DNA of 64,000 bases from a virus. Numbering within the stretch: the first letter of the stretch is position 1; each line of letters starts with the position of its first letter. The stretch lies in IMG/VR virus record IMGVR_UViG_3300050190_000082, positions 1 to 64,000 of that record. The stretch is one strand, 5' to 3'. Below the pieces are notes generated by a model that saw only the letters and a program-made list of their open reading frames with translations, was not told where the DNA came from and did no database searches. A program made the position numbers and the translations under genes. Shown piece after piece: positions 454 to 62,121 of the stretch.

Positions 454-518
454 ATTACTTGTAGATAAGAAATTAACTAAATTATATTATACTTAATTTG
501 AAAGGCGGATGTATTAAT

Positions 519-1298
519 ATGTTCAATGCAAGAGGGAAATCAAATGAGGTAAAAGACTTTAAGAAGTTAGCAATCCTAGTTAAAAAAGCAATTGGGTATA
601 ACACTATCCCAGAATTTACAGATCTGGCAGGAATTCCAAACTCTACTAAACAAATAATTGATATTATTAATGGAAAAAGTGCTACATATCCAGAAGTTGG
701 GTTACTTCAAAAAATTGCTAATGGATCTCAACTTAGAGTCACATTTAATGAATTGAGAATTGCATGTGGATATAATTTAAATGACAGTGGAGTTGATCTA
801 AGAGGAGTAAACGTATTTAGAGGGTGGATATGTCGGTGTGACTATGGAAACGTCATAGACAGTGAGCAAGGTGGGATACGCCCCTCTCTCGTAATTCAGA
901 ACGACATGGGGAACTCACATGCACCAATAACAATGGTAATTCCTTTATCGAGCCGTTTAGGTAAAAATAATATGCCTACTCATATCAGAATTGGTCAAGA
1001 ATCTGGATTGCAATATGAATCAGAAATATTAGTAGAACAAATGAGAGTGGTATCAAAAAGTCGGTTAATGGTTGACGGTTTCATTCAGCCAATATGTGAG
1101 TGTCCCGAAGAAATTCTTAGAAGGGTCGAAATTGCAATTATGAAACAAACTGGGATGGTGGGTACAAGAGTAAACGAATCTGTTGTAGATAGATTTTTAG
1201 ATAAACTAAATGAATATGCTCATAAGGCAGAAGAAAGTTATAACAATCGTAATTATAATCAAAATACTAATCCACAAAGAGTAGCTTCATTTGCATAA
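519..1298 (+). CDS. HTH-MazF fusion: MazF/PemK-type endoribonuclease with an N-terminal helix-turn-helix-like domain
   Basis: ATG 519 is preceded by AAAGGCGG at a proper distance; a TTG at 498 in the same frame lies upstream of that site. Residues 1-95 look like an HTH regulator (IPEFTDLAGIPNSTKQIIDII). From about residue 100 the sequence is MazF-like: RGWICRCDYG, SEQGGIRPSLVIQND (115 on), PLSSR, MPTHIRI and EILVEQMRVVSKSRL (169 on), which cover the RNA-binding and catalytic loops of EndoA/MazF. MazF enzymes are sequence-specific mRNA interferases. The last 60 residues are polar and low in complexity. No separate mazE antitoxin adjoins, so the N-terminal domain may supply autoregulation or inhibition (inference). 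Confidence 0.8.
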   Translation: MFNARGKSNEVKDFKKLAILVKKAIGYNTIPEFTDLAGIPNSTKQIIDIINGKSATYPEVGLLQKIANGSQLRVTFNELRIACGYNLNDSGVDLRGVNVFRGWICRCDYGNVIDSEQGGIRPSLVIQNDMGNSHAPITMVIPLSSRLGKNNMPTHIRIGQESGLQYESEILVEQMRVVSKSRLMVDGFIQPICECPEEILRRVEIAIMKQTGMVGTRVNESVVDRFLDKLNEYAHKAEESYNNRNYNQNTNPQRVASFA

Positions 1299-2492: not shown

Positions 2493-4271
2493 ATGTTGAT
2501 AACCAAAACTGTAATAATTAAATGGAGTTCCAAAACTAATAAATGGTATAGAAATAAAGGGTATGTATTTACTAAATGGGGAGATGAGTTTGAAGTAAAT
2601 GTCGAGGATTTAACTGCTGGTTCTGGAATAGGCGTAAAAATAGAATGTGATGGGGAAGGGTGTACAACCCCTTTTCTTAAAAATATAAGATGGTGTGACT
2701 ATATAAAAAGTGGTCATAAAGGAGGTAAATATTATTGCCATAAATGTGCAGCAAATTTATTTGCCATTAAAAAGGGAGTAAAAACGAAACTGATGAATGG
2801 ATTGTCATTTTATCAATGGTGCTATAATAACCTATCTAAAGAAGAAGCTGATATAATATTATCTAGATGGGATTATAATAAGAATGTTGATAAAGACAAT
2901 AATATAATAACACCTAAAGATGTTAGCTTTAGCTCTGTAGGACCAGACAGAAAAGGCTACTGGTTTAAATGTTTAGATCACCCTGAACATAAGTCTGAGA
3001 GAAGAAGTATTAGCACTTATACAAGTGGCAAAAATGGGACTATTAATTGTAGTCAATGTAATACATTAGCAATGACTCATCCTGAATTTATAAAATATTT
3101 AGTAGATGAGAAAGATTTATACGAATATTCATCTGGGTCAAATAAAAGTATTATTCTAAAATGCCCCGAGTGTGGATTTGAAAAACCAATGCAAATTCCT
3201 AGATTATTAAATCAAGGGTTCGGATGTCCTAGATGTTCTGATGGGGTTAGTTATCCAGAAAAATTTATGTTTAATGTTTTGGAACAATTAAATGTAGATT
3301 TTAAAACACAATTAAATAAAACTGTATTTGATTGGTGCAATGGTTATAGATACGATTTCTATATCCCTATATTAAATTGCATAATAGAGACACACGGTAT
3401 CCAGCATTATGAGAGAAAACTAGATAAATGGATGTCATTACAAGAAACTCAGGAGAATGATAGATGTAAGGAGCGAATAGCTAAAGAAAATAGTATTGTT
3501 AATTATATAACGTTGGACTGTAGAGATTCCAAAATAGATTGGATTAAGAATAGCATAATGACCAGTAATTTGCCTTCTTTGTTAGGATTTAAAGAATTGG
3601 ACATAGATTGGCTAAAATGCCACGAATCTGCTTGTAATAGTTTAGTTAGGGTAGTTTGTGATTTGTGGAATAGTGGCATAAATAGTACACTTGAGGTAGC
3701 AAATAAATTAAAAATTAGCAGACCTACAGCTACAAGATATTTAAATAAAGGGGTCCAATTGGGGTGGTGTAATTATAACCCAGTTGAAGAGAGCGAAAAG
3801 AATCGTCTTAATAAAAAGCAATGTAAAGAAGTAATTTGTTTAAATACAAAAGAAAAATTTAATTCTTTAAAAGATGCCTGTGAAATGTATAATATTAAGA
3901 GTTCAAATATGACTTATTGTTGTAGCAATGATTATAAAGCTAAAACAGCAGGAATAGATCCTAATACAGGGAATGCTTTGGTGTGGATGTTTTACGATGA
4001 ATATGTATTAAAAAATAAAGTATTAGGTTGGTTTAATGATTATATGAATATATATGGTCATAATCATAAAGTAGTATGCTTAACTACTGGAGAAATATTT
4101 GAGTCTCAAACAGTTGCAGCAAAAGAATATAAACTAATAAATGGAGGTAATATAGGGTCTTGTTGTAATAAAAAAGCAAAGTCAGCAGGGAAGCATCCTG
4201 ATACGGGAGAACCACTAAGATGGATGCATTACGCAGAGTATGTAAGCAGTGAGATTAACCATATAATTTAA
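2493..4271 (+). CDS. Free-standing homing endonuclease, zinc-ribbon + EDxHD-type nuclease + NUMOD-like repeats
   Basis: 592 aa. The first 260 residues carry several CxxC pairs (CHKC, CSQC, CPEC, CPRC), suggesting stacked zinc ribbons. Then YPEKFMFNVLEQLNV, a YRYDFYIP strand and IIETHGIQHYE follow, matching the Vsr-like PD-(D/E)XK variant (EDxHD) of I-Bth0305I-type homing enzymes. Next is an HTH-like region (EVANKLKISRPTATRYL) and two similar C-terminal repeats (VICLNTKEKF..., VVCLTTGEIF..., each ending in W-M-x-Y-x-E-Y), typical of NUMOD-type DNA-binding units. It has its own promoter and terminator and belongs to no operon, as expected for an inserted selfish gene. A 615-aa paralogue lies at 56823-58670. 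Confidence 0.8.
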   Translation: MLITKTVIIKWSSKTNKWYRNKGYVFTKWGDEFEVNVEDLTAGSGIGVKIECDGEGCTTPFLKNIRWCDYIKSGHKGGKYYCHKCAANLFAIKKGVKTKLMNGLSFYQWCYNNLSKEEADIILSRWDYNKNVDKDNNIITPKDVSFSSVGPDRKGYWFKCLDHPEHKSERRSISTYTSGKNGTINCSQCNTLAMTHPEFIKYLVDEKDLYEYSSGSNKSIILKCPECGFEKPMQIPRLLNQGFGCPRCSDGVSYPEKFMFNVLEQLNVDFKTQLNKTVFDWCNGYRYDFYIPILNCIIETHGIQHYERKLDKWMSLQETQENDRCKERIAKENSIVNYITLDCRDSKIDWIKNSIMTSNLPSLLGFKELDIDWLKCHESACNSLVRVVCDLWNSGINSTLEVANKLKISRPTATRYLNKGVQLGWCNYNPVEESEKNRLNKKQCKEVICLNTKEKFNSLKDACEMYNIKSSNMTYCCSNDYKAKTAGIDPNTGNALVWMFYDEYVLKNKVLGWFNDYMNIYGHNHKVVCLTTGEIFESQTVAAKEYKLINGGNIGSCCNKKAKSAGKHPDTGEPLRWMHYAEYVSSEINHII

Positions 4272-4284
4272 TAATAATATTAGT

Positions 4285-4325
4285 AAACTATCTATACGAT
4301 CAAAAACGTATAGATAGTTTTATTA
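4285..4325 (+). terminator. Rho-independent terminator of the homing endonuclease gene
   Basis: AAACTATCTATACG (4285-4298) pairs perfectly with CGTATAGATAGTTT (4307-4320), followed by a T-rich stretch. Confidence 0.9.
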
Positions 4326-4340
4326 TTTATGTATAATTGC

Positions 4341-4369
4341 TTGATTTTTAACATATAATATTGTATAAT
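4341..4369 (+). promoter_or_regulatory. Promoter of the DGQHR / recombinase-fold operon
   Basis: TTGATT (4341-4346), a 17-bp spacer and TATAAT (4364-4369), 42 bp before ATG 4412. The -35 matches that of the homing endonuclease promoter at 2413. Confidence 0.75.
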
Positions 4370-4411: not shown

Positions 4412-5773
4412 ATGCTAAAAGAAAAATCAGTTGATCTCATTCAGGAACTTGATACGCTCATACAAAAGTACGCATCGAACGATAAGGTAAGGAATATAAT
4501 TGTTAACGAATTTACTAAAAGAAATATGAAGGGTAGCCTAGCTATTAGTATTCTTAATGAAAAAAGAGAATTATCTACACTAAATATTGATGAAGGGAAA
4601 GATTTAATTTTACTGTTTGTTTTTAATAAAGGGATGTTTTCTGCCTTAACTCATAAAGAAGATGATGAGTCACAACCATTAGGAGAAATAAGCGAAGGTT
4701 TAAAAATAACTCCTGAGAATTATTTTAATCCAATTGAGATTGAAAATATGAATGATTATAAGGAAGATAAAAAGTCAGATGCAAAGCGACAATATGTTTT
4801 CCATAATATGATTCAGGTTGCAGAGGGGTACTGGAAGGGAATTGTATCTGCTAAACAGTTAGCTACAATAGATGAGGGGAATGACATCATCTATTCATTT
4901 AAGACTCAGAGAGACCCCCACATTGATATCTATGGAATGAAAAGGATTCAACTTGATAAAAACAAAGTAGAAAAGATTGCAAATAGATTGCTTTCTGGGA
5001 CTCAATTTTCAGATGAGATAAAACTAAATCTGCTTCATGATGGTGAGGACCAAATATCCTATAATGATAAAAATGGAGATTTAACTATTATTTCAGGGAA
5101 TTTAAATATCTTTGATGGTTATCACAGAATGACTGCCAGTTCGATCTTTGTCACTAAATCGGAAAAGGCTATCTCCTTCAACTGGGGGCTAGTAATCACT
5201 AATTTCAGTGAGAAGAAAACTCAAGAATTTATGGTTCAAATCAATGAACAGAAACCTATGAGACAGGAACACATTAAGGCGTTAGATACCTCAAAATTGG
5301 GTAATATAGTGTCAGATGCAATTAGAGATATTGATACTAGTGAATTTGCACAAAATATTAAAGATTCTTCAGCAGAACTAAAGTTTTCAGGTCTGGTTCG
5401 CAAATCCCTACTGGCAACTAGTATAGAAGAATGCTACAAAGATAAATTAACTAACCGCCTTCAAGCAAAACCAATTGCAAGACATATTGCACAAGTTATG
5501 GATTATATTATAGGATTAAATCTTGAAGCGTTTATAGTCAATCCTGATCCAACTCACAGTTATATAGCACATAGTAATATGTTTGCAGGGTATGTTGCCT
5601 TGTCAGAAAGATTATATGATGTAAATGGTTGGGAAGATATATTGGAAGAAGTAATTGATAGAATTGATTTCAATGTAGAAAATGTATTTTGGAAAGATAT
5701 TGGGTTATTAGAAACTGATATGAAAAAATCAACGAGAAATAACCTTTACAAATTCTTTTATAAATTAGTATAA
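4412..5773 (+). CDS. DGQHR/ParB-like domain protein, YopQ-like candidate
   Basis: 453 aa. Around residue 235 it has IFDGYHRMTASSI, a variant of the DGQHR motif of DndB/ParB-like proteins, followed by NWGLVITNF and FMVQINEQKPMRQEHIKALD, the usual second part of this fold (asparagine- and QKP-containing helix). Proteins of this class bind DNA or nucleotides; activity cannot be assigned. It is first in an operon with a tyrosine-recombinase-fold protein 23 bp downstream. In SPbeta, yopQ lies immediately before yopR (mrpR), and this pair has the same arrangement, so a role in lysogeny control is plausible but inferred. It could instead be a DNA-modification accessory protein. Confidence 0.6.
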   Translation: MLKEKSVDLIQELDTLIQKYASNDKVRNIIVNEFTKRNMKGSLAISILNEKRELSTLNIDEGKDLILLFVFNKGMFSALTHKEDDESQPLGEISEGLKITPENYFNPIEIENMNDYKEDKKSDAKRQYVFHNMIQVAEGYWKGIVSAKQLATIDEGNDIIYSFKTQRDPHIDIYGMKRIQLDKNKVEKIANRLLSGTQFSDEIKLNLLHDGEDQISYNDKNGDLTIISGNLNIFDGYHRMTASSIFVTKSEKAISFNWGLVITNFSEKKTQEFMVQINEQKPMRQEHIKALDTSKLGNIVSDAIRDIDTSEFAQNIKDSSAELKFSGLVRKSLLATSIEECYKDKLTNRLQAKPIARHIAQVMDYIIGLNLEAFIVNPDPTHSYIAHSNMFAGYVALSERLYDVNGWEDILEEVIDRIDFNVENVFWKDIGLLETDMKKSTRNNLYKFFYKLV

Positions 5774-5796
5774 TTAATTATAGGGGGTATTTTAAA

Positions 5797-6837
5797 ATGG
5801 TTGAACAAAATGAATTACAAAGTGAAGAAGTGTCTTTTGAAGTTGATGCAGAATATAAGGAAGAATTTTTAGAAAAACAATTGAAATCTACTAGAAGTTT
5901 TTATTCTTATGTTCTTAAAAAAGCAGATGAGTTTGAAGTGCAGTTGGGTTTAAAAATCTACGACTTTTCAACAGACGATAGAGATGAGTTGCTAAAAGTT
6001 CAATACAAAAACAAAAATGTTTGGGCATTCCAAACTGTTCTAAGCCCCTTGAGAACGTATGTAGATTTTTGTATTGGTAAGAGTTTAGTTAGGCATAATC
6101 AAAATAGATTCTCTACGATTCTTCCAGCAGATTATAACCAATATACTAATGATCAAGCGAAAGAAAACTCTTATATTACACAATCTGAAAATAGAGAATT
6201 CCAAAAAGGGTTAATAAATTATCAGGATAAATTAATTATTGAATTATTGGGATTAGGTGTTAGAGGCCGAACTGAAAAAGGAAATACTTTAGAGGAATTA
6301 ATCAACTTAAAAGTGAGCGATATTAATTATGAGGAGAAGCAAATATATCTAACAAGTAACGATGGCGAATTAAGATATTTGGAAGTTGATGATTATACTT
6401 TAGACCTAATTAAGAAAACAATTGACAGAGGATTTTATCTATTTGGTAATGGATTGAAAGGAAAGCCTAATGAAGATGGTGTATATGAAAAGACTGATAA
6501 AGGATTTATTATAAATGAGACAGAATATGTTTTCAGAACTCCTGGAAAGAAGAAATTTGGCAAAACAGATTATCAACTATTTGCTAATCGAGTTCAGAGG
6601 ATACAGGGATGGTTACAAAAACCATATTTAACTGTCAGTAATTTATACTTCTCGTCTATAATTTCATGGGCAAAAAAACTAAAAGAAGAAAAGGGCGAGC
6701 CATTAACTAGAGAAGATTATATTAGAATTAATGAGAAATTCCGATTTGGTGGATCAGTCTCAGAAAATCCAAAAGCAGGTGAGAAATATGTTTATAAAAC
6801 TCGTGAAATTGTTGAATCTTATTTAGATAAGGAGTAA
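5797..6837 (+). CDS. Tyrosine-recombinase-fold protein lacking a clear catalytic set; MrpR (YopR)-like repressor candidate
   Basis: 346 aa, ATG 5797 with AGGGGG upstream. Residues 30-95 look like a SAM-like core-binding domain. Around residues 145-180 the sequence LIIELLGLGVRG...LEELINLKVSDINYEEKQIYL mirrors the catalytic-domain entry of XerC/Int proteins (normally TGLRxSEL...LxxxDID). No HxxR box or family-typical active-site tyrosine context is visible further on. That pattern is known from YopR/MrpR, the SPbeta master repressor, which has an integrase fold but works as a DNA-binding repressor. Here it follows a DGQHR-type protein and precedes an XRE-like gene, as in SPbeta. Alternative: a divergent but active integrase. 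Confidence 0.6.
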   Translation: MVEQNELQSEEVSFEVDAEYKEEFLEKQLKSTRSFYSYVLKKADEFEVQLGLKIYDFSTDDRDELLKVQYKNKNVWAFQTVLSPLRTYVDFCIGKSLVRHNQNRFSTILPADYNQYTNDQAKENSYITQSENREFQKGLINYQDKLIIELLGLGVRGRTEKGNTLEELINLKVSDINYEEKQIYLTSNDGELRYLEVDDYTLDLIKKTIDRGFYLFGNGLKGKPNEDGVYEKTDKGFIINETEYVFRTPGKKKFGKTDYQLFANRVQRIQGWLQKPYLTVSNLYFSSIISWAKKLKEEKGEPLTREDYIRINEKFRFGGSVSENPKAGEKYVYKTREIVESYLDKE

Positions 6838-6840
6838 GTT

Positions 6841-7245
6841 ATGCAAAATACACTAATAGAGATGTGGAAAAAATATAACTTACTTGTGGAATTCAAATTA
6901 GGAATGAATAAAAAAGGATACTCTACAAGAGATTTGTATAGCATCCAAGTTCAAATTGTTTTATTAACAGAAATGATTCAGATTGAAAGTATGAACGTTT
7001 TAGGTAATTTATTGTTGAAAAAAAGTTATTTGAGATTGCTAAGATGTATTGATAGGGGCATTGAATATTTACCAGACATTGTAGATAATCCAGAAGGTTG
7101 GTGTTTAAATAAAATAGAGAATGATATAGAGTCATGGATAAATGAAGATACACTAATATTCACATGCAAAAATAATACAAATGTATTTAGTAAATTATCT
7201 AGGAATGATAACGGAAGAAAATATCAAGATGGCAAATGGCAATAG
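6841..7245 (+). CDS. Hypothetical protein, 134 aa
   Basis: It starts 3 bp after the recombinase-fold gene, using the AAGGAG at that gene's end, so it is translationally coupled. It is mostly alpha-helical, Leu/Ile-rich in the first 80 residues, with a polar C-terminal tail. No family is recognised. Its place between the putative repressor and the XRE-like gene suggests a role in the same control circuit. Confidence 0.7.
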   Translation: MQNTLIEMWKKYNLLVEFKLGMNKKGYSTRDLYSIQVQIVLLTEMIQIESMNVLGNLLLKKSYLRLLRCIDRGIEYLPDIVDNPEGWCLNKIENDIESWINEDTLIFTCKNNTNVFSKLSRNDNGRKYQDGKWQ

Positions 7246-7259
7246 AGAGGAGTGAAATT

Positions 7260-7664
7260 ATGAATTTTGGAGAAAAAATTACTTCATATAAAGAACGATT
7301 AAATCATAAAAACTTTCAAGATTTCGGAAGGGCTGCTAATTGCTCAGGCGACTGGCTGAATAACGCATCGAAAATGGAAGAAATTAAAGTTGTTGATATG
7401 CATAATCTAATAAATTTATGTGATTATCTTGGCATCACGATCAACCAATTAGTTGTCAACGATGAATATCTCTTAGATAGTGATAATGTAACTAAAAATG
7501 TCAGTAATTCAGATGATATAGGAGCATTACTAAATCAAATAGTATCTTATTTGAGTAATAACGAGGACTGTAAGCTCGATGGAGTATTGATGAATGATAA
7601 AGCAAAGGAAGTTTGCAAAGATAGCTTAGGCGTAGTTAGAATATTAACAAAACAACATTTATAA
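7260..7664 (+). CDS. XRE/Cro-like helix-turn-helix regulator
   Basis: GAGAGGAG sets the start at ATG 7260; an earlier ATG (7236) overlaps the previous gene and has no such site. The 134-aa product begins FGEKITSYKERLNHKNFQDFG and continues with a second helix pair (MHNLINLCDYLGITINQLV), the shape of an XRE/Cro N-terminal DNA-binding domain. The rest is acidic and helical and may dimerise. It is the fourth gene of the run starting at 4412. The expected role is transcriptional control of the element. Confidence 0.65.
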   Translation: MNFGEKITSYKERLNHKNFQDFGRAANCSGDWLNNASKMEEIKVVDMHNLINLCDYLGITINQLVVNDEYLLDSDNVTKNVSNSDDIGALLNQIVSYLSNNEDCKLDGVLMNDKAKEVCKDSLGVVRILTKQHL

Positions 7665-7676
7665 AAGGAGGGCAAT

Positions 7677-7871
7677 ATGTTGGATATCAATGAGGAAAGT
7701 GTGACAATTAAACGTTGTCACACAAATCATTGTCAAGTTTGCGGTAGAATGTATGAAGAAATTGAATTAGTATTTTTTATTCCCCTAGACAATAATCTTG
7801 TTTGTAGAAAGTGTGCTACAGAATCTGGATGTGAGTTTGAGCCAAGGATTTATGTTAAGGAACCAGATTAA
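7677..7871 (+). CDS. Small zinc-ribbon protein, 64 aa
   Basis: AAAGGAGG precedes ATG 7677. HCQVCGRMY and LVCRKCATES form two CxxC knuckles about 35 residues apart, so one zinc site is likely. Function unknown; last gene of the 4412-7871 run. Confidence 0.75.
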   Translation: MLDINEESVTIKRCHTNHCQVCGRMYEEIELVFFIPLDNNLVCRKCATESGCEFEPRIYVKEPD

Positions 7872-7892
7872 AATATTATTTATAATTTGTCC

Positions 7893-7921
7893 TTGACATT
7901 ATTTTCAAGTAATAGTATAAT
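7893..7921 (+). promoter_or_regulatory. Near-consensus sigma-A promoter
   Basis: TTGACA (7893-7898), a 17-bp spacer and TATAAT (7916-7921). It drives the 3D-domain gene at 8030 and probably the following small genes. Confidence 0.8.
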
Positions 7922-8632: not shown

Positions 8633-8681
8633 TTATATTGTAACTAATAAATAATATATATTGAAAGGAAATGATAAATTA

Positions 8682-22980: not shown

Positions 22981-25514
22981 TACCATACCTAAGAACAACT
23001 GATAAAAACACGATTAATTGCAATTCTGATCTTGTGATTCTTGATAGTACAGAAGTGATATTAATTAGCTTATGTGATTTGAATATCAAGAACAGAAAAA
23101 TATGTGCTGATTTAATATCACATTCCTATCAAGTTTCACTAAGGGACAGAGAAGATATATTCTTTGAGCAGACATTATATGGTCATGAAAATCATTATAG
23201 ATATAAATCTGACAGAATGGATAATGATTTAACTCATACAATTATTTACAATACTAAAATTAATGATTATTGTATCAACTGGGGAAATGAAGACAAGAAT
23301 GTAATTATCACAAAATATCTTAGGAATATTCACTATTTACCCGTCAAAAGTGAAGTCGTTAGTATGATTCTTGATAAAGATGAAGATAGTAAGTATTATA
23401 GTTGTGTAAGCGAATGCACAGTCCATACTAATAATCCCTTGTATGCTGAATTGAAAGTTTATAAAATAAATGTTACTTACTTTAGAGAGAAACTAAATGC
23501 TCTAACATTAGAAGGATATCAAGATGATTTTGATTGGTCGCAGATAGAGGATATCGAGAATTACATATTCACATTTCTTGAGCCAATTAAAGAGCGATTG
23601 AAACAGACTGTAAAAATATTGTATGATCCAAACAATATCAATCAGAAAATGTTTGAAGGTAAAATGAAACCATATGATGGTCAAGTGCCAATTATTCAAT
23701 CTGCATTGGAAGTATTAAAAAGGAGTAGATTTGTATATTTAGCTGCTGAGATGGGAGTTGGGAAAACATTAATTGCAACTAAGGCAAACCATTGTCATTT
23801 ATATCAAAACAAGAAAAACTATGTAGCATTGATTGTAGCTCCTGCTATTACATTAACTCAATGGGAAGAAGAAATTAAGAATAGCATCTCTGATAAAGTG
23901 GATATTCACATAATCAAAAAGACATCTGAATTTATTAAAATTTACAATAAGAGCAAGATGAATTTTGATAAACCTACATACTTTCTTGTTGGGAAAGAAA
24001 CATTTAAACTTGATGCAAAAAGAGTATCTGGTGTAAATATTAAAACTAGGGAAATTAAGTATAAAAAAGAAGTACAAAAATATAGTTGGAATAGTATAGA
24101 AGAAGTCAAGGAGAAAATTACTATTGCATGTTGTCCTGACTGTGGTAAACCACTACAGAATGAATTAAGAAAAAAGGAAGATGTATTCTTTACTGAAGAA
24201 GATTTTAATGGCAATCCTAAGAAAAGTAATTATAAATGTGGACAATGTGGTGCTGTATTATGGCAGAGTGTTTATGATAAAACAAAGAAAACTAGTCTGA
24301 TTCATTTTATAAAGACTAAGAATTTACATTTTGATTCTGTAATTAATGATGAGATTCACGAATCTAATTCAAGTAATTCAATTATTGGGAATGCAACTAG
24401 AACATTGTTTAATTATGCTAAGAAGATAATTCTACTCTCAGGGACAAGTAATTCAGGATATAGTTCATCCTTCCACTCACTTTTTATGGGTTTAATGCCC
24501 AATAAACTTAAAGCAAATAATGTTTTAGATATTCAACAATTCATTAAAACTTATGGAACGTTAATGGCAGTTAGTAAAAAGAAAGATGGAGAATATTATC
24601 GTTCAGGTCGTAGTGAAATTAAGGATAGTGAATTTAAAGAGATTGAAGGAATTAATCCTATTGTCTTTGCAAAGTATCTTGTTGAGAATTACATATTTGC
24701 CACACTAGAAGACTTAGGAAAGGATCTGCCGGACTTAAATGAGTATTACGTCCCAATACATCAAAGCAATCAAATGGAAGGATTAGAAAGGCAATTATGG
24801 AATGATATTAAGTCTGCTAATGCTTTTAATGCCAAGATGTATGAAGATTCAATTGTAAAACATTATGTTAATAATCCATTCAAATGGGATGCTATACCGA
24901 TTGAAAAAGATGGATGTACTTATTCAGTTCAACCAGGATGTATAGATGATGTTATTTTACCTAAAGAACAGAAGTTATTAGGTATAATATTGCAAGAAGT
25001 TTCTGAAGGCAGAAAATGTTGTGTCTATGTTGATTTCAATAATGGTGGAGAATATATGCAAGGTAATACTATTTCTAAGAGGATTGAACTATTGCTGAAT
25101 AAAAATGGGATTAAAACATTTACATTGAAAACTTCGGTTGCTACATATGATAGAAAAGAATTATTAGAGAAAAAGAAAGATGATTTTCAAGTGCTGATAA
25201 CAAATGCAATTCTTGTAAAAGTAGGTATTAACCTTGTTTTTATTCCAACCTATATAAATTATATGCCTAGCTATCATGTTAATATTGTTAGTCAATCAAA
25301 TCGAAGAGGATATAGGGCCAACAGTACCTTGGAAAATAGGATTTATCATTTGTATTATGAAAATAGTTGTGAAAATCCCATCGTTAAGAGATACCAGAGG
25401 AAATTAGCTGAGTCTCAAGCTGTAGAAGGTAAATTTAATGTTTGTATTGAAGACGATGATAGTATTAGAACTGCCAGTAAGCTAGGAAAAAGAATAAGTG
25501 AAGAAGTTATATAA
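22977..25514 (+). CDS. SF2 (DEAD/SNF2-like) helicase with zinc-ribbon insertion
   Basis: 845 aa. Walker A is AAEMGVGKT (about residue 257); motif Ia is IVAPAITLTQWEEEI; motif II is NDEIHE (about 457); motif III is ILLSGTSNSG. A Cys4 zinc ribbon (CCPDCGKP...YKCGQCGAVLW) sits between motifs Ia and II. The C-terminal half has ISQSNRRGYR-like motif VI (SQSNRRGYRANS). The first 230 residues are of no recognised family. No nuclease motif is visible. Coupled to the methyltransferase by ATGA, suggesting a joint complex that modifies, remodels or restricts DNA; related pairs occur on mobile elements. Confidence 0.75.
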   Translation: MIPYLRTTDKNTINCNSDLVILDSTEVILISLCDLNIKNRKICADLISHSYQVSLRDREDIFFEQTLYGHENHYRYKSDRMDNDLTHTIIYNTKINDYCINWGNEDKNVIITKYLRNIHYLPVKSEVVSMILDKDEDSKYYSCVSECTVHTNNPLYAELKVYKINVTYFREKLNALTLEGYQDDFDWSQIEDIENYIFTFLEPIKERLKQTVKILYDPNNINQKMFEGKMKPYDGQVPIIQSALEVLKRSRFVYLAAEMGVGKTLIATKANHCHLYQNKKNYVALIVAPAITLTQWEEEIKNSISDKVDIHIIKKTSEFIKIYNKSKMNFDKPTYFLVGKETFKLDAKRVSGVNIKTREIKYKKEVQKYSWNSIEEVKEKITIACCPDCGKPLQNELRKKEDVFFTEEDFNGNPKKSNYKCGQCGAVLWQSVYDKTKKTSLIHFIKTKNLHFDSVINDEIHESNSSNSIIGNATRTLFNYAKKIILLSGTSNSGYSSSFHSLFMGLMPNKLKANNVLDIQQFIKTYGTLMAVSKKKDGEYYRSGRSEIKDSEFKEIEGINPIVFAKYLVENYIFATLEDLGKDLPDLNEYYVPIHQSNQMEGLERQLWNDIKSANAFNAKMYEDSIVKHYVNNPFKWDAIPIEKDGCTYSVQPGCIDDVILPKEQKLLGIILQEVSEGRKCCVYVDFNNGGEYMQGNTISKRIELLLNKNGIKTFTLKTSVATYDRKELLEKKKDDFQVLITNAILVKVGINLVFIPTYINYMPSYHVNIVSQSNRRGYRANSTLENRIYHLYYENSCENPIVKRYQRKLAESQAVEGKFNVCIEDDDSIRTASKLGKRISEEVI

Positions 25515-25529
25515 CTAATATATAATTTA

Positions 25530-25558
25530 TGTTGACTTTGTATCTTATCCGTTATATA
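25530..25558 (+). promoter_or_regulatory. Sigma-A promoter upstream of the lipoprotein gene
   Basis: TTGACT (25530-25535), 17 bp, TATAAT (25553-25558). Confidence 0.75.
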
Positions 25559-43370: not shown

Positions 43371-45626
43371 TTGAAAGATAAAAATATAGTGGAGTTTCAA
43401 GGTACTGTAGTGGCTAACCCATACAATACTGAAGATTTCAAAATATATGGGTTAAATGTTGATTACATTAAGTTCCCTAATATTAAGACGAATAAATATG
43501 GCAATGTGAGTCTTATTGGTAATCTACCAGACCTTGAAGATGGTGTTGAGTTTAGTATAAAAGCGGAAGAAACAAACGGTAAGAATGGAATCTCTTATAA
43601 GTTTATTAATATCAAACGAGATAGGCCCAAAACAGAAGCATCAACTAGATTATTCTTACAAAGTATATTAGATAGTAATAGTCATGTTGATGAAGTTATG
43701 CGTGAATATCCAGACATTATTGATAGAGTTATTAATAATCGTCTGGATGATATTGATTTAAAGAAGTTATATAATATTGGCGAATTTCGTTTTGAAGTTA
43801 TTAAACGTAAAATCATTGAAAACTTTGCACTTGCAGAACTCGTTAGTGAGTTTAAAGGATTCATAGAATTCAAAGTATTAAAGATTCTTTATGATAAATA
43901 TGGTTGTATTGAGAAGATATTAGAAAAATTACAAGATAACCCATATATGTGCTTGTGCGGTCTGTCAAGGATTGCTTTTAAAACAGCAGATAAGATACTC
44001 CTAGAGTTTAATAAAGAGTGCATTAACATGAAAGAGAAAGGAGAAAAACCACCTATTGATTTCACTTTTGATCTAGTAACTTCGAGTCAAAGACAGAAAT
44101 CAGCTATTATGTTTTTACTAGGAGAGAATGAGAATGATGGCAATACTAAGATTGATATAAAAACACTTAGAAAACAATCTGAGGCAATAGCTAATAAATG
44201 TATTGAACACTTTGTTGATATTATTAAAAATGATGAGGACATACACTTTGACAAAGATACTCATACTGTTGCATTAGAAGAAACATATGAAACTGAAGAG
44301 TATATTGCTAATAAAATTTTACAAGGTTTGAAGGTAGAGAATAAATGGGATATAGACACGGAGAAATACAAAGTCAATTCTGAAGTAACCCTTACAGATC
44401 AACAGTATCAAGTTCTTCCTATGGTATGTAATTCAAATATATGTATTCTAAATGGTTTCGCCGGATCAGGCAAAAGTCAAACAACTAAATCAATTATAGA
44501 TATGTTAAAAGCTAATAATAAATCATTTATCTTATTAGCTCCTACAGGAAGGGCTGCTAAGGTACTCTCTGAGTTCACGAATGAACCTGCATCTACAATA
44601 CATCGTGGATTAGCTTATATACCTCCAGAATGGGGTTACAATGAAAAATATCCATTGCATTACGATGTAGCATTGGTAGATGAATTTTCTATGTGTGATG
44701 TATTCCTTATGAAACATTTACTTGAAGCAATTAACTTTGATAAAACAAAATTATTAATGATTGGAGATAGTTCACAAATTCCTTCTGTTGGAGCAGGAAA
44801 CGCTTTTTTTGACTTAATAAACTCAAAGTTAATTCCAATTGTTTCACTCACACAGATATTCAGATATGGAGAAGGAGGAGTTCTAACAGTAGCAACAAAA
44901 ACAAGAAATAGTGAAAAGTTTTTATGTGACTCACAAAAACCACAAATATTTGGAGAAGACAAAGGATATGTATTTATACCAACACAACAAGAAAAACTTA
45001 TAAACAATGTAACTAGTTTGTATAAAAAACTATTAGGTTCAGGTACTTTAAAAGAGGATATAATGATATTATCTTCTTATAATGTAGGTGAATATGGTAC
45101 TATTAATATAAATAAACACCTTCAACCTATATCTAATCCCAATGTTCTAAGGGGTGGAATAAATATTCAACTTGGAGATACTAAATTTTATGAAAATGAT
45201 CTAGTAATACAAACTATGAATAATTATAAAGCGAAAAAGTATGATGATGGATGGGCAGATGAAGAAGAAAAAATATTCATTGCAAATGGAGAAATAGGTA
45301 AAATAGTCAAGATAGAGTATGGCAAAGTAATTATACAGTTCGATGAGTTAGTTATTTATACTAAAAGTGATTTGTTAAATGTCAAATTATCATATAGTAT
45401 TAGCACTTTTAAGGCTCAAGGGGGTCAAGCAAAAATAGTCATTCTTATCACTCCTAAAGCACATACATTTATGCTTAATAGTAATTTAATCTACGTAGGT
45501 CAAACTAGATCAAAACAAAAAGTATTTCACTTTGGAGAAATAGAAACAGTTAATAGAGCAATCAAAAAGAAAGCTGACTTCAACAGAAAAACATACCTAA
45601 AAGAATTAGTTACAAATAATATATAA
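43371..45626 (+). CDS. RecD2-like SF1 helicase
   Basis: 751 aa from TTG 43371 (AAAGTAGG upstream). Walker A GFAGSGKS (about 362-369), LLAPTGRAAKVL (Ia), LVDEFSM (II, about 436), LLMIGDSSQIPSVGAGN (III), LTQIFRYGEGG (IV) and a UvrD-like C-terminal segment STFKAQGGQAKIVIL...LIYVGQTRSKQKVFHFG (motifs V-VI). The N-terminal 340 residues include a helix-hairpin-helix region, as in RecD2. Likely 5'-3' helicase for fork repair or recombination. It ends the replication operon. Confidence 0.85.
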   Translation: MKDKNIVEFQGTVVANPYNTEDFKIYGLNVDYIKFPNIKTNKYGNVSLIGNLPDLEDGVEFSIKAEETNGKNGISYKFINIKRDRPKTEASTRLFLQSILDSNSHVDEVMREYPDIIDRVINNRLDDIDLKKLYNIGEFRFEVIKRKIIENFALAELVSEFKGFIEFKVLKILYDKYGCIEKILEKLQDNPYMCLCGLSRIAFKTADKILLEFNKECINMKEKGEKPPIDFTFDLVTSSQRQKSAIMFLLGENENDGNTKIDIKTLRKQSEAIANKCIEHFVDIIKNDEDIHFDKDTHTVALEETYETEEYIANKILQGLKVENKWDIDTEKYKVNSEVTLTDQQYQVLPMVCNSNICILNGFAGSGKSQTTKSIIDMLKANNKSFILLAPTGRAAKVLSEFTNEPASTIHRGLAYIPPEWGYNEKYPLHYDVALVDEFSMCDVFLMKHLLEAINFDKTKLLMIGDSSQIPSVGAGNAFFDLINSKLIPIVSLTQIFRYGEGGVLTVATKTRNSEKFLCDSQKPQIFGEDKGYVFIPTQQEKLINNVTSLYKKLLGSGTLKEDIMILSSYNVGEYGTININKHLQPISNPNVLRGGINIQLGDTKFYENDLVIQTMNNYKAKKYDDGWADEEEKIFIANGEIGKIVKIEYGKVIIQFDELVIYTKSDLLNVKLSYSISTFKAQGGQAKIVILITPKAHTFMLNSNLIYVGQTRSKQKVFHFGEIETVNRAIKKKADFNRKTYLKELVTNNI

Positions 45627-45631
45627 TATAT

Positions 45632-53215: not shown

Positions 53216-53244
53216 TTGACTTTACAAGTAATAAATAATATAAT
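53216..53244 (+). promoter_or_regulatory. Sigma-A promoter
   Basis: TTGACT (53216-53221), 17 bp, TATAAT (53239-53244). It drives the 53286-56674 run. Confidence 0.78.
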
Positions 53245-56690: not shown

Positions 56691-56728
56691 AATAGACTTT
56701 ATGCTCAATATAGAGTGTGAAGTCTATT
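56691..56728 (+). terminator. Hairpin closing the nucleotide-metabolism run
   Basis: AATAGACTT (56691-56699) pairs with AAGTCTATT (56720-56728); no long T-run. Confidence 0.5.
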
Positions 56729-56748
56729 AAACTATATATAATATTAAC

Positions 56749-56822: not shown

Positions 56823-58670
56823 ATGTTGATTACTAAAGAAGTTGAAGTGGGATTAAAATCACAAACCATAAAATGGTATGAAGATAAAGGTTATGAGATA
56901 CCAAGAAGGATAGATAAGTATGGGAAGAACCGTGTTAAAAAGGGAACAAAAATTAAAGTGAAAGTAGAGGATCTAACTGATAGTTCAGATGTGCCAGTTA
57001 ATGTTCAATGCGATGGTTGCGGAGAATTATTAGAAGATATAAGATGGCATTCCTATAAAAAATGTGTAAAACAAGATGGTAAATATTATTGCCTTAAATG
57101 TGCAATGAGATTATATGGTTCGGTAAATCTAAAGAAAACCTTATTAGAGAAGAGTATATCTTTCTACCAATGGTGTTATACTAATCTTTCTAAAGAATTA
57201 GCAGATTATATATTATTGAGATGGGATTATGATTTAAACATTGATGAATATGGTAAAAATATAAGCCCTGAAGATGTTTGTATTTGTTCTTCTCTTTCTA
57301 AGGGAAAGGGATATTGGTTTAAATGTTTAGATCATCCTGAACATGATTCTGAACAGAAAAGTATCATAGATTTTACAAGAAGACAAAAAACAAGTCTTAA
57401 TTGTATTCAATGTAACATGATAGTAGTAACTCACCCTGAATTGGTAAAATATTTAGTAAATAAAGAGGACGCATATAAATACTCCATAGGATCAAATGTC
57501 AAAATACCAATGAAATGCCCTAATTGTGGATTTGAAAAAATGATGTCCCTTAATACCTTATTTAGAGGATTTGGCTGTTCGAGGTGCTCTGATGGCGTGA
57601 GTTATCCTGAGAAGTTTTTATTTTCAATGTTGGAGCAGTTAGATGTAATTTTCAAGGTTCAGTTAAGTAGTAAAACCTTTGAATGGTGCAAAACTTATAA
57701 ATATGACAATTATATAGATAATATGAGTTGTATAATAGAAACTCATGGAATCCAACACTATGAAGAAATCAAGGGGAGTTGGAAGATGACTTTAGCTGAA
57801 ATACAAGAAAATGATAAATCTAAAGAAAAGATCGCTAAAGAAAACGGAATAATGAGTTATATAATTTTGGATTGTAAGCACTCAAATACTAAATGGATTA
57901 AGAATAGTATAATAGAAAGTGATTTACCGAGGGTATTAGGGTTTAAAGAAGATGATGTAAATTGGCTTGAATGCCATGAATTAGCTTGCTCAAGTTTAGT
58001 TAAAATAGCGTGTGAACTCTGGAATAGTGAAATTAAAAACACAACATATATAGCAGATAAATTAAAAGTAGATAAACATACAATTGTAAAATATTTAAAG
58101 CAAGGCGTTGAATTAGGTTGGTGTGATTACGATCCAGATGAAGAAAAAAAGAAAAGAAGTATTTCAATGAAAGAATTAAACTCTAGAAAAATGATTTGTT
58201 TAACGACTAAAGAAGTATTTGATTCTCAAACAGAAGCTGAGCAAAAATATTCTATAATAAATATATCTGCATGTTTTGGCAAAGGAAGACAAAAATCAGC
58301 AGGAAGACATCCTGAAACGGGTGAGAAATTAGTATGGATGTTCTATGATGAATATTTAGTTAAATCACAAATTATAGGGTGGTGTGAAGAATATATAAAC
58401 AGTCACAATGGTAAAATAATCTGTCTGACTACAAATGAAATCTTTAATCAGCAATCTGAAGCATGTAATAAATACAACATATCTCCTTCGTGCATATCTA
58501 TGTGTTGTAGCAATAAATACAAGTCAGCAGGCAAACATCCAGATACAGGAGAATTATTGAAGTGGATGAATTATGGTGAATACATTAAAGCTCAAAAATC
58601 AGATTTACCTCCTGTGGATAACTTTCAAAGCACAACCAATAATAATAGTAAGATAAACCATTTTGTATAA
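56823..58670 (+). CDS. Free-standing homing endonuclease, paralogue of the 2493 gene
   Basis: 615 aa. It matches the 592-aa protein domain by domain: Cys pairs (CDGCGELL, YYCLKCAMR, CIQC, CPNCGFE, CSRC), FYQWCYTNLSKELADYILLRWDY, YPEKFLFSMLEQLDV, YKYDNYIDNMSCIIETHGIQHYE, an HTH (IADKLKVDKHTIVKYL) and two C-terminal repeats (MICLTTKEVF..., IICLTTNEIF...). YRYDFYI of the first copy is YKYDNYI here, so an active-site-region residue differs. It has its own promoter. The two copies bracket most of the window. Confidence 0.8.
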   Translation: MLITKEVEVGLKSQTIKWYEDKGYEIPRRIDKYGKNRVKKGTKIKVKVEDLTDSSDVPVNVQCDGCGELLEDIRWHSYKKCVKQDGKYYCLKCAMRLYGSVNLKKTLLEKSISFYQWCYTNLSKELADYILLRWDYDLNIDEYGKNISPEDVCICSSLSKGKGYWFKCLDHPEHDSEQKSIIDFTRRQKTSLNCIQCNMIVVTHPELVKYLVNKEDAYKYSIGSNVKIPMKCPNCGFEKMMSLNTLFRGFGCSRCSDGVSYPEKFLFSMLEQLDVIFKVQLSSKTFEWCKTYKYDNYIDNMSCIIETHGIQHYEEIKGSWKMTLAEIQENDKSKEKIAKENGIMSYIILDCKHSNTKWIKNSIIESDLPRVLGFKEDDVNWLECHELACSSLVKIACELWNSEIKNTTYIADKLKVDKHTIVKYLKQGVELGWCDYDPDEEKKKRSISMKELNSRKMICLTTKEVFDSQTEAEQKYSIINISACFGKGRQKSAGRHPETGEKLVWMFYDEYLVKSQIIGWCEEYINSHNGKIICLTTNEIFNQQSEACNKYNISPSCISMCCSNKYKSAGKHPDTGELLKWMNYGEYIKAQKSDLPPVDNFQSTTNNNSKINHFV

Positions 58671-59785: not shown

Positions 59786-60259
59786 CTACTTCCCTGCTTT
59801 GTTTTCCTTAAAATCTATATCTTCCATAAAACTATTTAACATAAATCTAACAAATGCACTTTCATTTTCAAATTTCTTACTCATTTCTTGTACAAATGTC
59901 TTTTGTTTTTTTGTAACATTTGCAACTAATCTTGACGAAAATTTTTCATTCTTAATCGGTATCTGTACACTATATTTCATAGGTGTTTGAATAGTATTTA
60001 TTGGGGTTTCTAGTGTAGTAGTTAGTGCACTACTCTGTTCACTTGTTAAGGTATTACTTGGTATACTATCTTTGTCTGTATTAAAGACATTTTCCTTGAC
60101 GCTACTTTGTTGTGTTACATTTACACTTTCATCCTTACTATCTTGGATAGTCTCACGTACAACATCTTTAATAGTATCTACTTCTGTATCTAATACAATG
60201 ATCTGTTCAGTATCCTTCTTTTTACCAAATCCTACTCCCTGAACAAGTTTCTTACTCAT
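59786..60259 (-). CDS. Partition centromere-binding protein, ribbon-helix-helix type
   Basis: 157 aa. The start overlaps the parA stop (60256-60259). The first 95 residues are polar and flexible, rich in Thr/Ser/Asp. The C-terminal domain SSRLVANVTKKQKTFVQEMSKKFENESAFVRFMLNSFMED has the beta strand and two helices of an RHH DNA-binding protein. This is the usual partner of a short ParA (ParG/omega-like role). A possible centromere-like site lies within the gene (60019-60031). Confidence 0.75.
   Translation of the reverse strand: MSKKLVQGVGFGKKKDTEQIIVLDTEVDTIKDVVRETIQDSKDESVNVTQQSSVKENVFNTDKDSIPSNTLTSEQSSALTTTLETPINTIQTPMKYSVQIPIKNEKFSSRLVANVTKKQKTFVQEMSKKFENESAFVRFMLNSFMEDIDFKENKAGK
60019..60031. 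promoter_or_regulatory. Candidate par site inside the RHH gene
   Basis: TAGTTAGTGCACT here is identical to 61088-61100 upstream of parA; TAGTGTA lies beside both. Confidence 0.35.
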
Positions 60260-61041
60260 AATGCTAAAACCTCCTCTGTAAAGCTTATATAGTCCATTAC
60301 AGCATCATTAGTAGGTGAATATATAATTGGTGGTTGTCCAACATATTGAGCTTCACCTATCCTTACACTTCTTCTGATTGCAGTTTTAAAAACATGAATA
60401 TTTCTTTGCTCACAAAACTTCTGAATCTCTTGTGAAACATTACTTGATAGATTTGTTCTTGCTTGAAATATTGTCATTAAAACCCCAAGAATATTTACAT
60501 TAGGATTATAATCATCCTTAACTATTTTCACAGTCTTTAATAAATCATTCAATCCAGATAATGCAAATTGTTCTGGAGGTGTAGGTATTATTATTCCATC
60601 AGTAGCCGACAAACAATTAATCGTAAGCCAACCCAACGAAGGAGGACAGTCAATAATTATAAAATCATAATTGTCTTTAATATCAGCAATAGCATTTTTC
60701 AACCAATGGGCAGGAGTATACTCTTCCCTATTGTGTTCAACTAACATATCAAAATTAGCTAAAGACAAATTGCTTGGTATTAGATCAACTTGATAATCCG
60801 TTTTTATAATTACATCTTTAATAGAATACTTGTCTACAAATACATCATAGATTGTTTTCTCTATGTCTTCAGGCTTGATCCCTATTGAAAGTGAGATATT
60901 TCCTTGAGGGTCAAAATCTATGATGAGAACCTTTTTCTTTTTCTTTGCTAAAGCTGTTGCTAGACAAACAACAGTTGTACTTTTACCGACTCCACCTTTC
61001 TGTAAACTCACGCATATGGTATTAGTCTTTACATTGCCCAT
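60256..61041 (-). CDS. parA: ParA-type partition ATPase
   Basis: ATG at 61041 is preceded by AAGGAG; an in-frame ATG at 61056 is upstream of that site. 261 aa. Deviant Walker A LQKGGVGKSTT (K15, K20), IIDFDPQGNIS, DYDFIIIDCPPSLGWLTIN (Walker B) and PTPPEQFALSGL are the hallmarks of Soj/ParA. There is no N-terminal HTH, so it is the short plasmid type Ib or Soj-like. The ATPase moves plasmid copies over the nucleoid with the RHH partner encoded directly after. Confidence 0.92.
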   Translation of the reverse strand: MGNVKTNTICVSLQKGGVGKSTTVVCLATALAKKKKKVLIIDFDPQGNISLSIGIKPEDIEKTIYDVFVDKYSIKDVIIKTDYQVDLIPSNLSLANFDMLVEHNREEYTPAHWLKNAIADIKDNYDFIIIDCPPSLGWLTINCLSATDGIIIPTPPEQFALSGLNDLLKTVKIVKDDYNPNVNILGVLMTIFQARTNLSSNVSQEIQKFCEQRNIHVFKTAIRRSVRIGEAQYVGQPPIIYSPTNDAVMDYISFTEEVLAL

Positions 61042-61068
61042 AATAATCTCCTTCATACTATTAAATAT

Positions 61069-61203
61069 AGTGTTAAATGCTTGCCATTAGTTAGTGCACT
61101 GTGTAGTGTACTGTTTAAACAATTGCTTATTATGCTGATTATACCATAGAGTAGTCATAAATTAAATACCCTTGCATATATAAGTGTTAAACAAGTGTTA
61201 AAC
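61069..61203. promoter_or_regulatory. Divergent par control region with direct repeats
   Basis: Between the ParA and ParM operons: two exactly adjacent copies of AAGTGTTAAAC (61182-61192, 61193-61203), a shorter AGTGTTAAA (61069-61077), and TAGTTAGTGCACT (61088-61100) followed by TAGTGTACT. These are candidate operators/centromeres, the tandem pair for ParR and the other for the ParA-linked RHH protein. Confidence 0.5.
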
Positions 61204-61224
61204 AAAACTAGGGAGGGATTATCC

Positions 61225-62121
61225 ATGTTGTTTTTTGATTGCGGTAATTCATACATTAAAGCAAGAAATTCTATAGGGAGGGAATTAATAAATTTATCTG
61301 TGGTAGGAAAAATTCAAGACACCTTCACAGAAAAAGAACTATTCCAAATAGACAATAAATACATTGGTGAAGATGCAATTTTGCATGGTTATGCACAAGA
61401 TTATTCATTAGATGAGATCAAAACAGAACAATCCACATTTAAAACTCTCACAAAATATGCTTTATGCAAGTACAAAGATGAAACTAAAATAGTTTTCTTA
61501 TTCCCTTTTGAATCATATTTTACAGAAAAGAAGCAAATAATAGAAATGTTCTCACGAAATATGGATATTGAATATAAAATCGGCAATACAACTTATACTC
61601 ATAGATTTAGACCTACTTTAATCAAAAGTCTCCCTCAAGGGTATTCTGCTGGAATGGATTATTTTCTTGATGACAAAGGCAAAATTAAAGAAGAAATCCC
61701 GAATATAACTCTAATAATTGATATAGGAATGGGTACTTGTAATCTGATTTATTTACTCAGGGGAGAAATAGTTAGAGAAATGAGTCATACAACTAAAAAT
61801 GGAATGCATCAGATTTACAAAAGAGCATTAAATGGTAGAAAGATTTATGAAGTTGACTTGTACAATGGTTATGATTCAGTAGCACCTTTGTATGATGACT
61901 TAGCAACATTAATAAAATCGGATATATCAACTTATTATGAAATTAAAAAAATAGATAAAATAGTTGTTGTAGGTGGAGGTGGAACTGCTATTTATAATTT
62001 CTTACCTTGGACGAATAAAGTCTCACATAAAGGGCAAATGACAAATATTAGAGGAGCTGAAAAGGTGGTGAAAAATTTATCATGGGGGAATTTAGAGCAT
62101 TCAGGGATGATAATGTCTTAA
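61225..62121 (+). CDS. parM: ParM-type actin-like plasmid segregation ATPase
   Basis: AGGGAGG places the start at ATG 61225; an in-frame ATG at 61195 lies within the repeat region. 298 aa. Actin-fold motifs: FFDCGNSYIKA (phosphate 1), LIIDIGMGTCNLIYL (phosphate 2), KIVVVGGGGTAIY (adenosine). Proteins of this kind form filaments that push plasmid copies apart with ParR bound at parC. Overlaps the ParR-like gene by 40 bp. Confidence 0.85.
   Translation: MLFFDCGNSYIKARNSIGRELINLSVVGKIQDTFTEKELFQIDNKYIGEDAILHGYAQDYSLDEIKTEQSTFKTLTKYALCKYKDETKIVFLFPFESYFTEKKQIIEMFSRNMDIEYKIGNTTYTHRFRPTLIKSLPQGYSAGMDYFLDDKGKIKEEIPNITLIIDIGMGTCNLIYLLRGEIVREMSHTTKNGMHQIYKRALNGRKIYEVDLYNGYDSVAPLYDDLATLIKSDISTYYEIKKIDKIVVVGGGGTAIYNFLPWTNKVSHKGQMTNIRGAEKVVKNLSWGNLEHSGMIMS

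What the first reader, a model, noticed from the sequence alone, without database searches (positions are those of the whole stretch)
4412..7871. Possible SPbeta-type lysogeny-control block (YopQ-YopR/MrpR-like plus XRE)
Seen: a DGQHR-type protein, then a tyrosine-recombinase-fold protein without an evident HxxR box or active-site tyrosine, then a small protein and an XRE-like gene, all under one promoter. Known: in SPbeta, yopQ precedes yopR, and YopR (MrpR) is an integrase-fold master repressor. Inference: this is the lysogeny switch of the element, possibly on an extrachromosomal prophage.
Basis: partly seen in the sequence, partly recalled or inferred. Interest (0 to 1): 0.72.

Follow-up and report, generated by a model that had tools for sequence, protein, structure and literature searches.

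The report
Integrase-turned-repressor switch in an anaerobe's phage
A large bacterial virus carries the two-gene repressor pair (a disabled DNA-recombinase plus its partner) that keeps the Bacillus virus SPbeta dormant, but in a deeply diverged form that lacks SPbeta's known chemical communication genes and comes with two new companion genes.

Summary
The window is the first 64 kb of a 153,759-bp IMG/VR virus record distantly related to SPbeta. The 453-aa protein is a YopQ (SroE) homologue: phrog_5732 E 5e-56; SPbeta yopQ is a tblastn hit. The 346-aa protein is a YopR/MrpR/SroF homologue: Pfam MrpR_N_CB is above cut-off. Its AlphaFold model (pLDDT 87) matches phi3T SroF bound to DNA and MrpR far better than any active recombinase. 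K, His, Arg II and His/Trp of the recombinase site are missing, and there is no HxxR. The order YopQ, MrpR, 134-aa, XRE, behind one promoter, is kept in seven related contigs. Differences from SPbeta: no sroA-D genes and no AimR were found; a clade-specific RGRTEKGNT insertion sits at the Arg I loop; SPBRE is absent. Instead about 18 copies of another ~20-bp box occur, many just upstream of -35 elements; split-half tests support the box, but its binder is unknown. A gene for an HTH-MazF fusion lies 3-4 kb upstream in six contigs. ParA and ParM genes fit extrachromosomal maintenance but do not prove it. Verdict: a new, arbitrium-free variant of the SPbeta repressor module. Repression and lysogeny remain inferred.

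The parts
4285..4320 (+). Intrinsic terminator that separates the cassette from the homing-endonuclease gene upstream
   Evidence: 14-pair stem, loop 8, T-rich tail
4341..4369 (+). Promoter of the cassette (TTGATT-17-TATAAT); no high-scoring box (best 4.8 bits)
   Evidence: a promoter-like sequence at the same place in L007, L027, L028, L029, L031, L033
4412..5773 (+). YopQ/SroE homologue, 453 aa, DGYHR (DGQHR/DndB-type)
   Evidence: phrog_5732 4.7e-56; SPbeta yopQ tblastn 3e-11, E3 7e-21
5797..6837 (+). YopR/MrpR/SroF homologue, 346 aa, inactive tyrosine-recombinase fold
   Evidence: PF22822 3.8e-10; PDB 8a0a 1.2e-7; model pLDDT 87 matches 9rd5 SroF-DNA; active site lost
6259..6297 (+). Codons 155-167, VRGRTEKGNTLEE: clade-specific insertion at the Arg I loop
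   Evidence: RGRTEKGNT invariant in the window clade, absent from all other MrpR homologues aligned
6841..7245 (+). 134-aa protein of unknown family, coupled to MrpR
   Evidence: 51-62% identity in 6 relatives; no phage, PDB or confident fold match
7236..7664 (+). XRE/Cro-CI-like HTH protein, 142 aa (start may be ATG 7263)
   Evidence: HTH_26 0.011 here, 3.3e-5 in relatives; 45-55% identity in the clade
7677..7871 (+). Small Cys-rich protein, end of the operon; poorly conserved position
   Evidence: found again only in L032 (62%)
7871..7891 (-). Box copy, inverted, directly upstream of the next operon's promoter (-35 at 7893)
   Evidence: promoter 12/12 consensus
8639..8659 (+). Box copy upstream of gene 8661
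   Evidence: 21.0 bits
14492..14512 (+). Box copy upstream of the -35 of the DNA ligase gene
25510..25530 (+). Box copy upstream of -35, gene 25609
45611..45631 (+). Box copy upstream of -35, gene 45908 and the anaerobic ribonucleotide reductase region
53223..53243 (+). Box copy between -35 and -10, gene 53286
56726..56746 (+). Box copy upstream of -35 of the second homing endonuclease; same arrangement in L007 contig at 44380
498..1298 (+). HTH-MazF fusion, 266 aa (likely start ATG 519), possible functional partner of the switch
   Evidence: PF02452 2.8e-21; MazF structures 4e-17; present in 6 of 7 relatives' contigs that reach far enough

Best explanation
The block is a diverged SPbeta-type repressor cassette. 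From one promoter it makes YopQ/SroE and MrpR/SroF together with two coupled proteins (134 aa and XRE-like). MrpR, a tyrosine-recombinase fold that can no longer cut DNA, with YopQ, binds repeated sites at early promoters and keeps the lytic genes off; a conserved ~20-bp box near these promoters is the candidate site. The prophage is probably held as an extrachromosomal element by ParA and ParM. The 134-aa and XRE proteins probably tune or relieve repression, in place of the sroA-D and arbitrium genes of SPbeta. Shown here: homology, predicted fold, loss of the active site in the alignment, conserved gene order, box enrichment. Inferred: DNA binding, repression, lysogeny, the role of the small genes.
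For: Homology of both proteins to the SPbeta pair in the same order. Profile of 26 homologues hits SroF and MrpR at 1e-71 and 4e-70, against 2e-8 for the best recombinase (most of the profile is E3/FADO-type, so the window-only figures are the stricter test). AlphaFold model top hits: 9rd5 SroF on DNA (TM 0.67/0.72), MrpR, SroF-Sar; recombinases 2e-5 or worse. Active site: R156, E167 and Y331 present; K, H, Arg II and H/W replaced by D189, S281, F285, V321; Arg II is F or T throughout the clade. Four-gene order kept in seven related contigs. The record shares terminase, YomM, YonN, YonO, YorL, YosS and more with SPbeta. Box: 6 of 9 strong intergenic promoters have TATATAAT within 22 nt upstream of -35 against 0.09 expected; halves of the genome predict each other, 11 v 0 and 8 v 1 over 14 bits for forward v reversed motif; the same search recovers SPBRE in SPbeta. 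Literature: YopR is the master repressor (PMC8612738; PMC10516654).
Against: No experiment. Pairwise identity to MrpR is only about 25% and Pfam MrpR_C_cat is below its cut-off (21.9 v 27). SPBRE is absent and nothing shows that MrpR binds the box; the box could be a promoter UP-type element or the site of the XRE protein or the 73-aa HTH protein. The cassette's own promoter has no good box. No host genome with the prophage was found and no terminal repeat shows circularity.
Confidence: 0.8

Rival explanations
1. The pair is homologous to the SPbeta repressors but serves a virulent phage: it times early genes or blocks superinfection and no lysogeny exists.
For: MrpR homologues sit in many large phages whose lifestyle was not tested here; no integrase of the SprA type and no host genome with the prophage were found.
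Against: ParA and ParM, YomM homologue, circular extrachromosomal records with MrpR homologues in B. velezensis, B. amyloliquefaciens and Thermoanaerobacterium; the neighbouring tyroviruses are temperate with ParM and T4SS-like genes (PMC9703825).
Confidence: 0.13
2. The 346-aa protein is an active tyrosine recombinase (integration or dimer resolution) and the block is a recombination module.
For: R156, E167 and Y331 align with catalytic positions; weak Pfam Phage_integrase (0.083) and XerA model matches.
Against: Lys, His, Arg II and His/Trp are missing; Arg II position is F or T throughout the clade; best matches are the inactive repressors. A separate YomM-type recombinase is in the record.
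Confidence: 0.03
3. The XRE protein (or the 73-aa HTH protein at record 111252) is the true repressor that reads the box; YopQ-MrpR has a side role.
For: XRE is co-oriented, overlapping and conserved; the box core TAATAT-ATA-ATATTA is nearly palindromic, as for dimeric HTH proteins; the box differs from SPBRE.
Against: MrpR and YopQ are more conserved than XRE in the clade; loss of YopR alone abolishes lysogeny in SPbeta (PMC8612738); the XRE copy here scores poorly as HTH.
Confidence: 0.15

Closest known systems
SPbeta yopMNOPQR = sroABCDEF (SPbeta phages repressor operon), YopR = MrpR = SroF
   Same: YopQ then YopR homologues, adjacent, one strand, one promoter; recombinase fold with lost active site; repeated intergenic element at promoters
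   Different: no YopM, N, O, P genes upstream and no AimR found; 134-aa and XRE genes downstream; Arg I-loop insertion; MrpR residues K169 and R258 not kept; SPBRE not found; 25% identity
phi3T SroF (PDB 9rd5, SroF on DNA; 9rgl, SroF with antirepressor Sar)
   Same: closest solved fold
   Different: no sequence match of the 134-aa or XRE protein to a chain of 9rgl was seen
Geobacillus virus E3 and Psychrobacillus phage Perkons yopP-yopQ-yopR triads
   Same: YopQ-MrpR order; E3 is the closest named relative (30% for MrpR)
   Different: integrase gene directly upstream there, absent here; no 134-aa/XRE pair there
Tyroviruses (Thrax1-5 and kin; PMC9703825)
   Same: temperate large phages near E3 with tyrosine recombinases, ParM and T4SS-like genes, proposed plasmid prophage stage
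   Different: Bacillus hosts; that paper does not describe an MrpR-type repressor in the passages read (the word repressor does not occur in it)
Clostridioides phage LIBA6276
   Same: closest replication gene (DNA polymerase III, 57%) and a DGQHR protein
   Different: its DGQHR gene lies next to dnaE; no MrpR hit in that record

Membership tests
MrpR/YopR/SroF repressor family | MrpR N-terminal core-binding domain (PF22822) | tested here: met
   40.7 bits, cut-off 27
MrpR/YopR/SroF repressor family | MrpR C-terminal domain (PF22823) | tested here: inconclusive
   21.9 bits, E 1.6e-4, below cut-off 27
MrpR/YopR/SroF repressor family | Fold: CB plus CAT domains, nearest to MrpR/SroF | tested here: met
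   top 7 Foldseek hits all MrpR/SroF
MrpR/YopR/SroF repressor family | Loss of recombinase active site | tested here: met
   4 of 7 residues gone, no HxxR; the three that remain are not the same three kept in MrpR
MrpR/YopR/SroF repressor family | Binds SPBRE | tested here: not met
   SPBRE matrix best score 15.8, no better than shuffles; binding itself not testable. This concerns the SPbeta site, not the family as such
MrpR/YopR/SroF repressor family | Needed for lysogeny | not testable with these tools
   needs genetics
YopQ/SroE family | Full-length match to phrog_5732 | tested here: met
   residues 7-449, 4.7e-56; SPbeta yopQ and E3 YopQ hit by tblastn
YopQ/SroE family | Adjacent to yopR | tested here: met
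   23 nt apart; also in clade
SPbeta six-gene sro operon | sroA-D (yopM, N, O, P) upstream | tested here: not met
   no YopM, N, O or P hit in the record
SPbeta six-gene sro operon | Arbitrium (AimR) nearby | tested here: not met
   no AimR hit in G000, or in held G001, G002, G004
Active tyrosine recombinase | R-K-HxxR-H/W-Y | tested here: not met
Phage-plasmid | Partition genes | tested here: met
   ParA AAA_31 1.8e-58; actin-like ParM
Phage-plasmid | Circular extrachromosomal replicon | tested here: inconclusive
   no terminal repeat in the record; record may be a fragment

The most novel reading that the evidence does not exclude
An arbitrium-free SroE-SroF switch in which a phage-encoded HTH-MazF RNase and the coupled 134-aa and XRE proteins replace the pheromone and host MazEF circuit of SPbeta/phi3T in setting lysis or lysogeny.
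Probability: 0.2. Interest if true: 0.72.

Novelty: new variant of a known kind. Interest (0 to 1): 0.5.

Why it matters
It extends a repressor type known mainly from B. subtilis SPbeta phages, a recombinase turned transcription factor, to a deep branch in phages with an anaerobic-type reductase. It shows that YopQ and MrpR form a core that persists without the arbitrium genes. It offers a natural comparison for how SroF reads DNA (Arg I-loop insertion, other box) and a candidate lysogeny control for ParM-bearing phages that may live as plasmids.

Tried and rejected
SPBRE search in this record: negative. Distant profile search with the 11-protein alignment could not run. Genome-contig scans for the MrpR and YopQ homologues found no relative. 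Box pattern with 2 mismatches across relatives was little better than its reversed control outside G000 and G001, so the box is not claimed for the whole clade; G002 and G004 show another AT-rich element (TAAAATAAATA) at the same place. Fold of the 134-aa protein was poor (pLDDT 69) and gave no match. No Rfam family in the first 12 kb. Reading the cassette as a recombination module was rejected on the active site. The internal promoter before MrpR was rejected as not conserved. ParM and the T4SS-like ATPase brought no close plasmid.

Full report
What it is in. The window is bases 1-64000 of a 153,759-bp IMG/VR virus record, 30.6% G+C, without terminal repeats. It shares with SPbeta a terminase (36%), YomM (52%), YonN (59%), YosS (68%), YonO, YorL, YonJ, YorJ, YorM, YorS and others. 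It encodes an anaerobic ribonucleotide reductase, and its DNA polymerase III is nearest to Clostridioides phage LIBA6276 (57%), so an anaerobic, Clostridia-type host is likely (inference).

The observation. The ORFs are as stated. A terminator (4285-4320) and a promoter (4341-4369) precede them. Six relatives have a promoter-like sequence at the same place, and the internal -35/-10 match before the MrpR gene is not conserved. The block is therefore most simply one operon. Promoter scans as such are no better than chance in this AT-rich DNA (55 found, 51 expected); the argument rests on position and conservation.

YopQ and MrpR. The 453-aa protein matches phrog_5732 over its length (4.7e-56) and SPbeta yopQ and E3 by tblastn. 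The 346-aa protein passes the Pfam MrpR N-domain cut-off, hits the MrpR structures by sequence (1e-7) and phrog_5830 (1.6e-43). Its AlphaFold model (pLDDT 87) has as best PDB matches phi3T SroF on DNA, YopR/MrpR and the SroF-Sar complex; active recombinases follow at 2e-5 and worse. By alignment to MrpR, catalytic Arg I is R156, the acidic residue E167 and the tyrosine Y331, but Lys is D189, His S281, Arg II F285 and His/Trp V321 (residue roles from PMC10516654). The alignment is at about 25% identity, so single positions near the C-terminus are uncertain. G136 of MrpR, the c2 site, is kept as G154; the SPBc2 record itself carries the c2 E, as expected.

A clade of its own. Searches of viral contigs gave seven further contigs, with MrpR at 55-66% identity. 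All keep YopQ, MrpR, 134-aa, XRE and a 139-aa gene upstream. Their MrpR proteins share an insertion RGRTEKGNT at the Arg I loop that no other aligned homologue has, and form a separate long branch (support 94/94; the join with the very long L017 branch is not to be trusted). The homing endonuclease gene at 2493-4271 is an insert: absent at this site in four contigs, present in L031, L032 and L033.

What is missing. No SprA, AimR, YopM, YopN, YopO, YopP or YosL hit was found in this record, and none in the held relatives G001, G002, G004. [quoted passage not shown] That SroE as well as SroF represses and SroD assists is my recollection of work not held here; PMC10769878 names the sro operon and a parallel study.

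Candidate sites. From SPbeta promoters I recovered SPBRE as ACAAATACAAATAATATGTATA; it is not in this record. A search seeded from promoter-upstream sequences, then an unseeded one, gave about A[CT]WA[AC]TAATA[AT]ATAATAT. The unseeded score is only slightly above the RBS motif (22.8 v 22.2 bits) and below SPBRE in the control (32.1), so the box is weaker evidence than SPBRE was. Independent support: six of nine strong intergenic promoters carry TATATAAT within 22 nt of -35 (0.09 expected), and matrices from one half of the record find copies in the other half and in G001 but not reversed (11 v 0, 8 v 1, 10 v 2 over 14 bits). Copies lie by promoters of ligase, reductase-region and other early-looking genes, inverted before the next operon (7871-7891), within the -35/-10 spacer at 53223, and between divergent genes at record 113489; such varied placement fits an operator better than an UP element (inference). 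Copies next to ribosome-binding sites (such as 8639, 46310) may partly be chance. The cassette promoter scores only 4.8 bits, so autoregulation as in SPbeta is not supported. G002 and G004 have a different element, TAAAATAAATA, at the same place. The binder is not known.

Extrachromosomal life. ParA (60256-61056) and an actin-like ParM (61195-62121) are present; ParM is 79% identical in G001. MrpR homologues occur on circular extrachromosomal records: plaBV1 with AimR, pMU3262 next to ParM, and a FADO-like 162-kb record. Tyroviruses, near E3, are temperate with ParM and T4SS-like genes (PMC9703825). This makes a plasmid prophage likely but not shown; the YomM-like recombinase leaves integration open.

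MazF. An HTH-MazF fusion gene lies upstream in the window and in the six related contigs whose sequence reaches far enough (in L007 the contig begins too close), each with its own promoter-like sequence. The arginine of SEQGGxRP and the following Ser/Thr of the catalytic pair are kept. Given the MazEF link of phi3T (PMC10769878), a role in the decision is attractive but untested; the two more distant contigs L056 and L058 also have a MazF upstream of YopQ.

Verdict. A new variant of the SPbeta repressor module, most likely the lysogeny switch of this element.

Noticed in passing
498-1298: HTH-MazF fusion with conserved catalytic residues and its own promoter-like sequence, near the repressor cassette in all clade contigs that reach far enough; L031 and L032 have a second MazF gene.
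   Followed up: partly
2493-4271 and 56823-58670: Two homing endonucleases 51% identical, with DNA repeats at a constant offset of 54,354 bases; the first interrupts the u139-YopQ interval only in some relatives.
   Followed up: partly
60256-62121: Divergent ParA and actin-like ParM genes, a plasmid partition module.
   Followed up: partly
L002 1102-3483: 793-aa T4SS-coupling/VirB4-like ATPase after small membrane proteins and before a short protein similar to the SPbeta tape-measure lytic domain; plasmid-like module as in tyroviruses (45% in G001).
   Followed up: partly
L002 4386-5750: Second DGQHR/DndB-type protein (454 aa, phrog_5732 6.6e-38), paralogue of the YopQ homologue.
   Followed up: partly
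L006 1417-3987: Distant YonO-type single-subunit RNA polymerase homologue (22% over 796 aa).
   Followed up: no
L004 10786-11880: YomM-type tyrosine recombinase (52%); like YomM and YopP it has HxFK in place of HxLR.
   Followed up: partly
L053 5866-9280: One contig with both an E3-type yopP-yopQ-mrpR triad and a second FADO-type MrpR gene.
   Followed up: no
L002 7522-8997: Secreted protein with cell-wall-binding CWB2 repeats and BspA-type leucine-rich repeats, a likely cargo gene.
   Followed up: no
L018 4980-5992: MrpR homologue of Mammaliicoccus phage phi36 is annotated as two adjacent ORFs, possibly a frameshifted gene.
   Followed up: no
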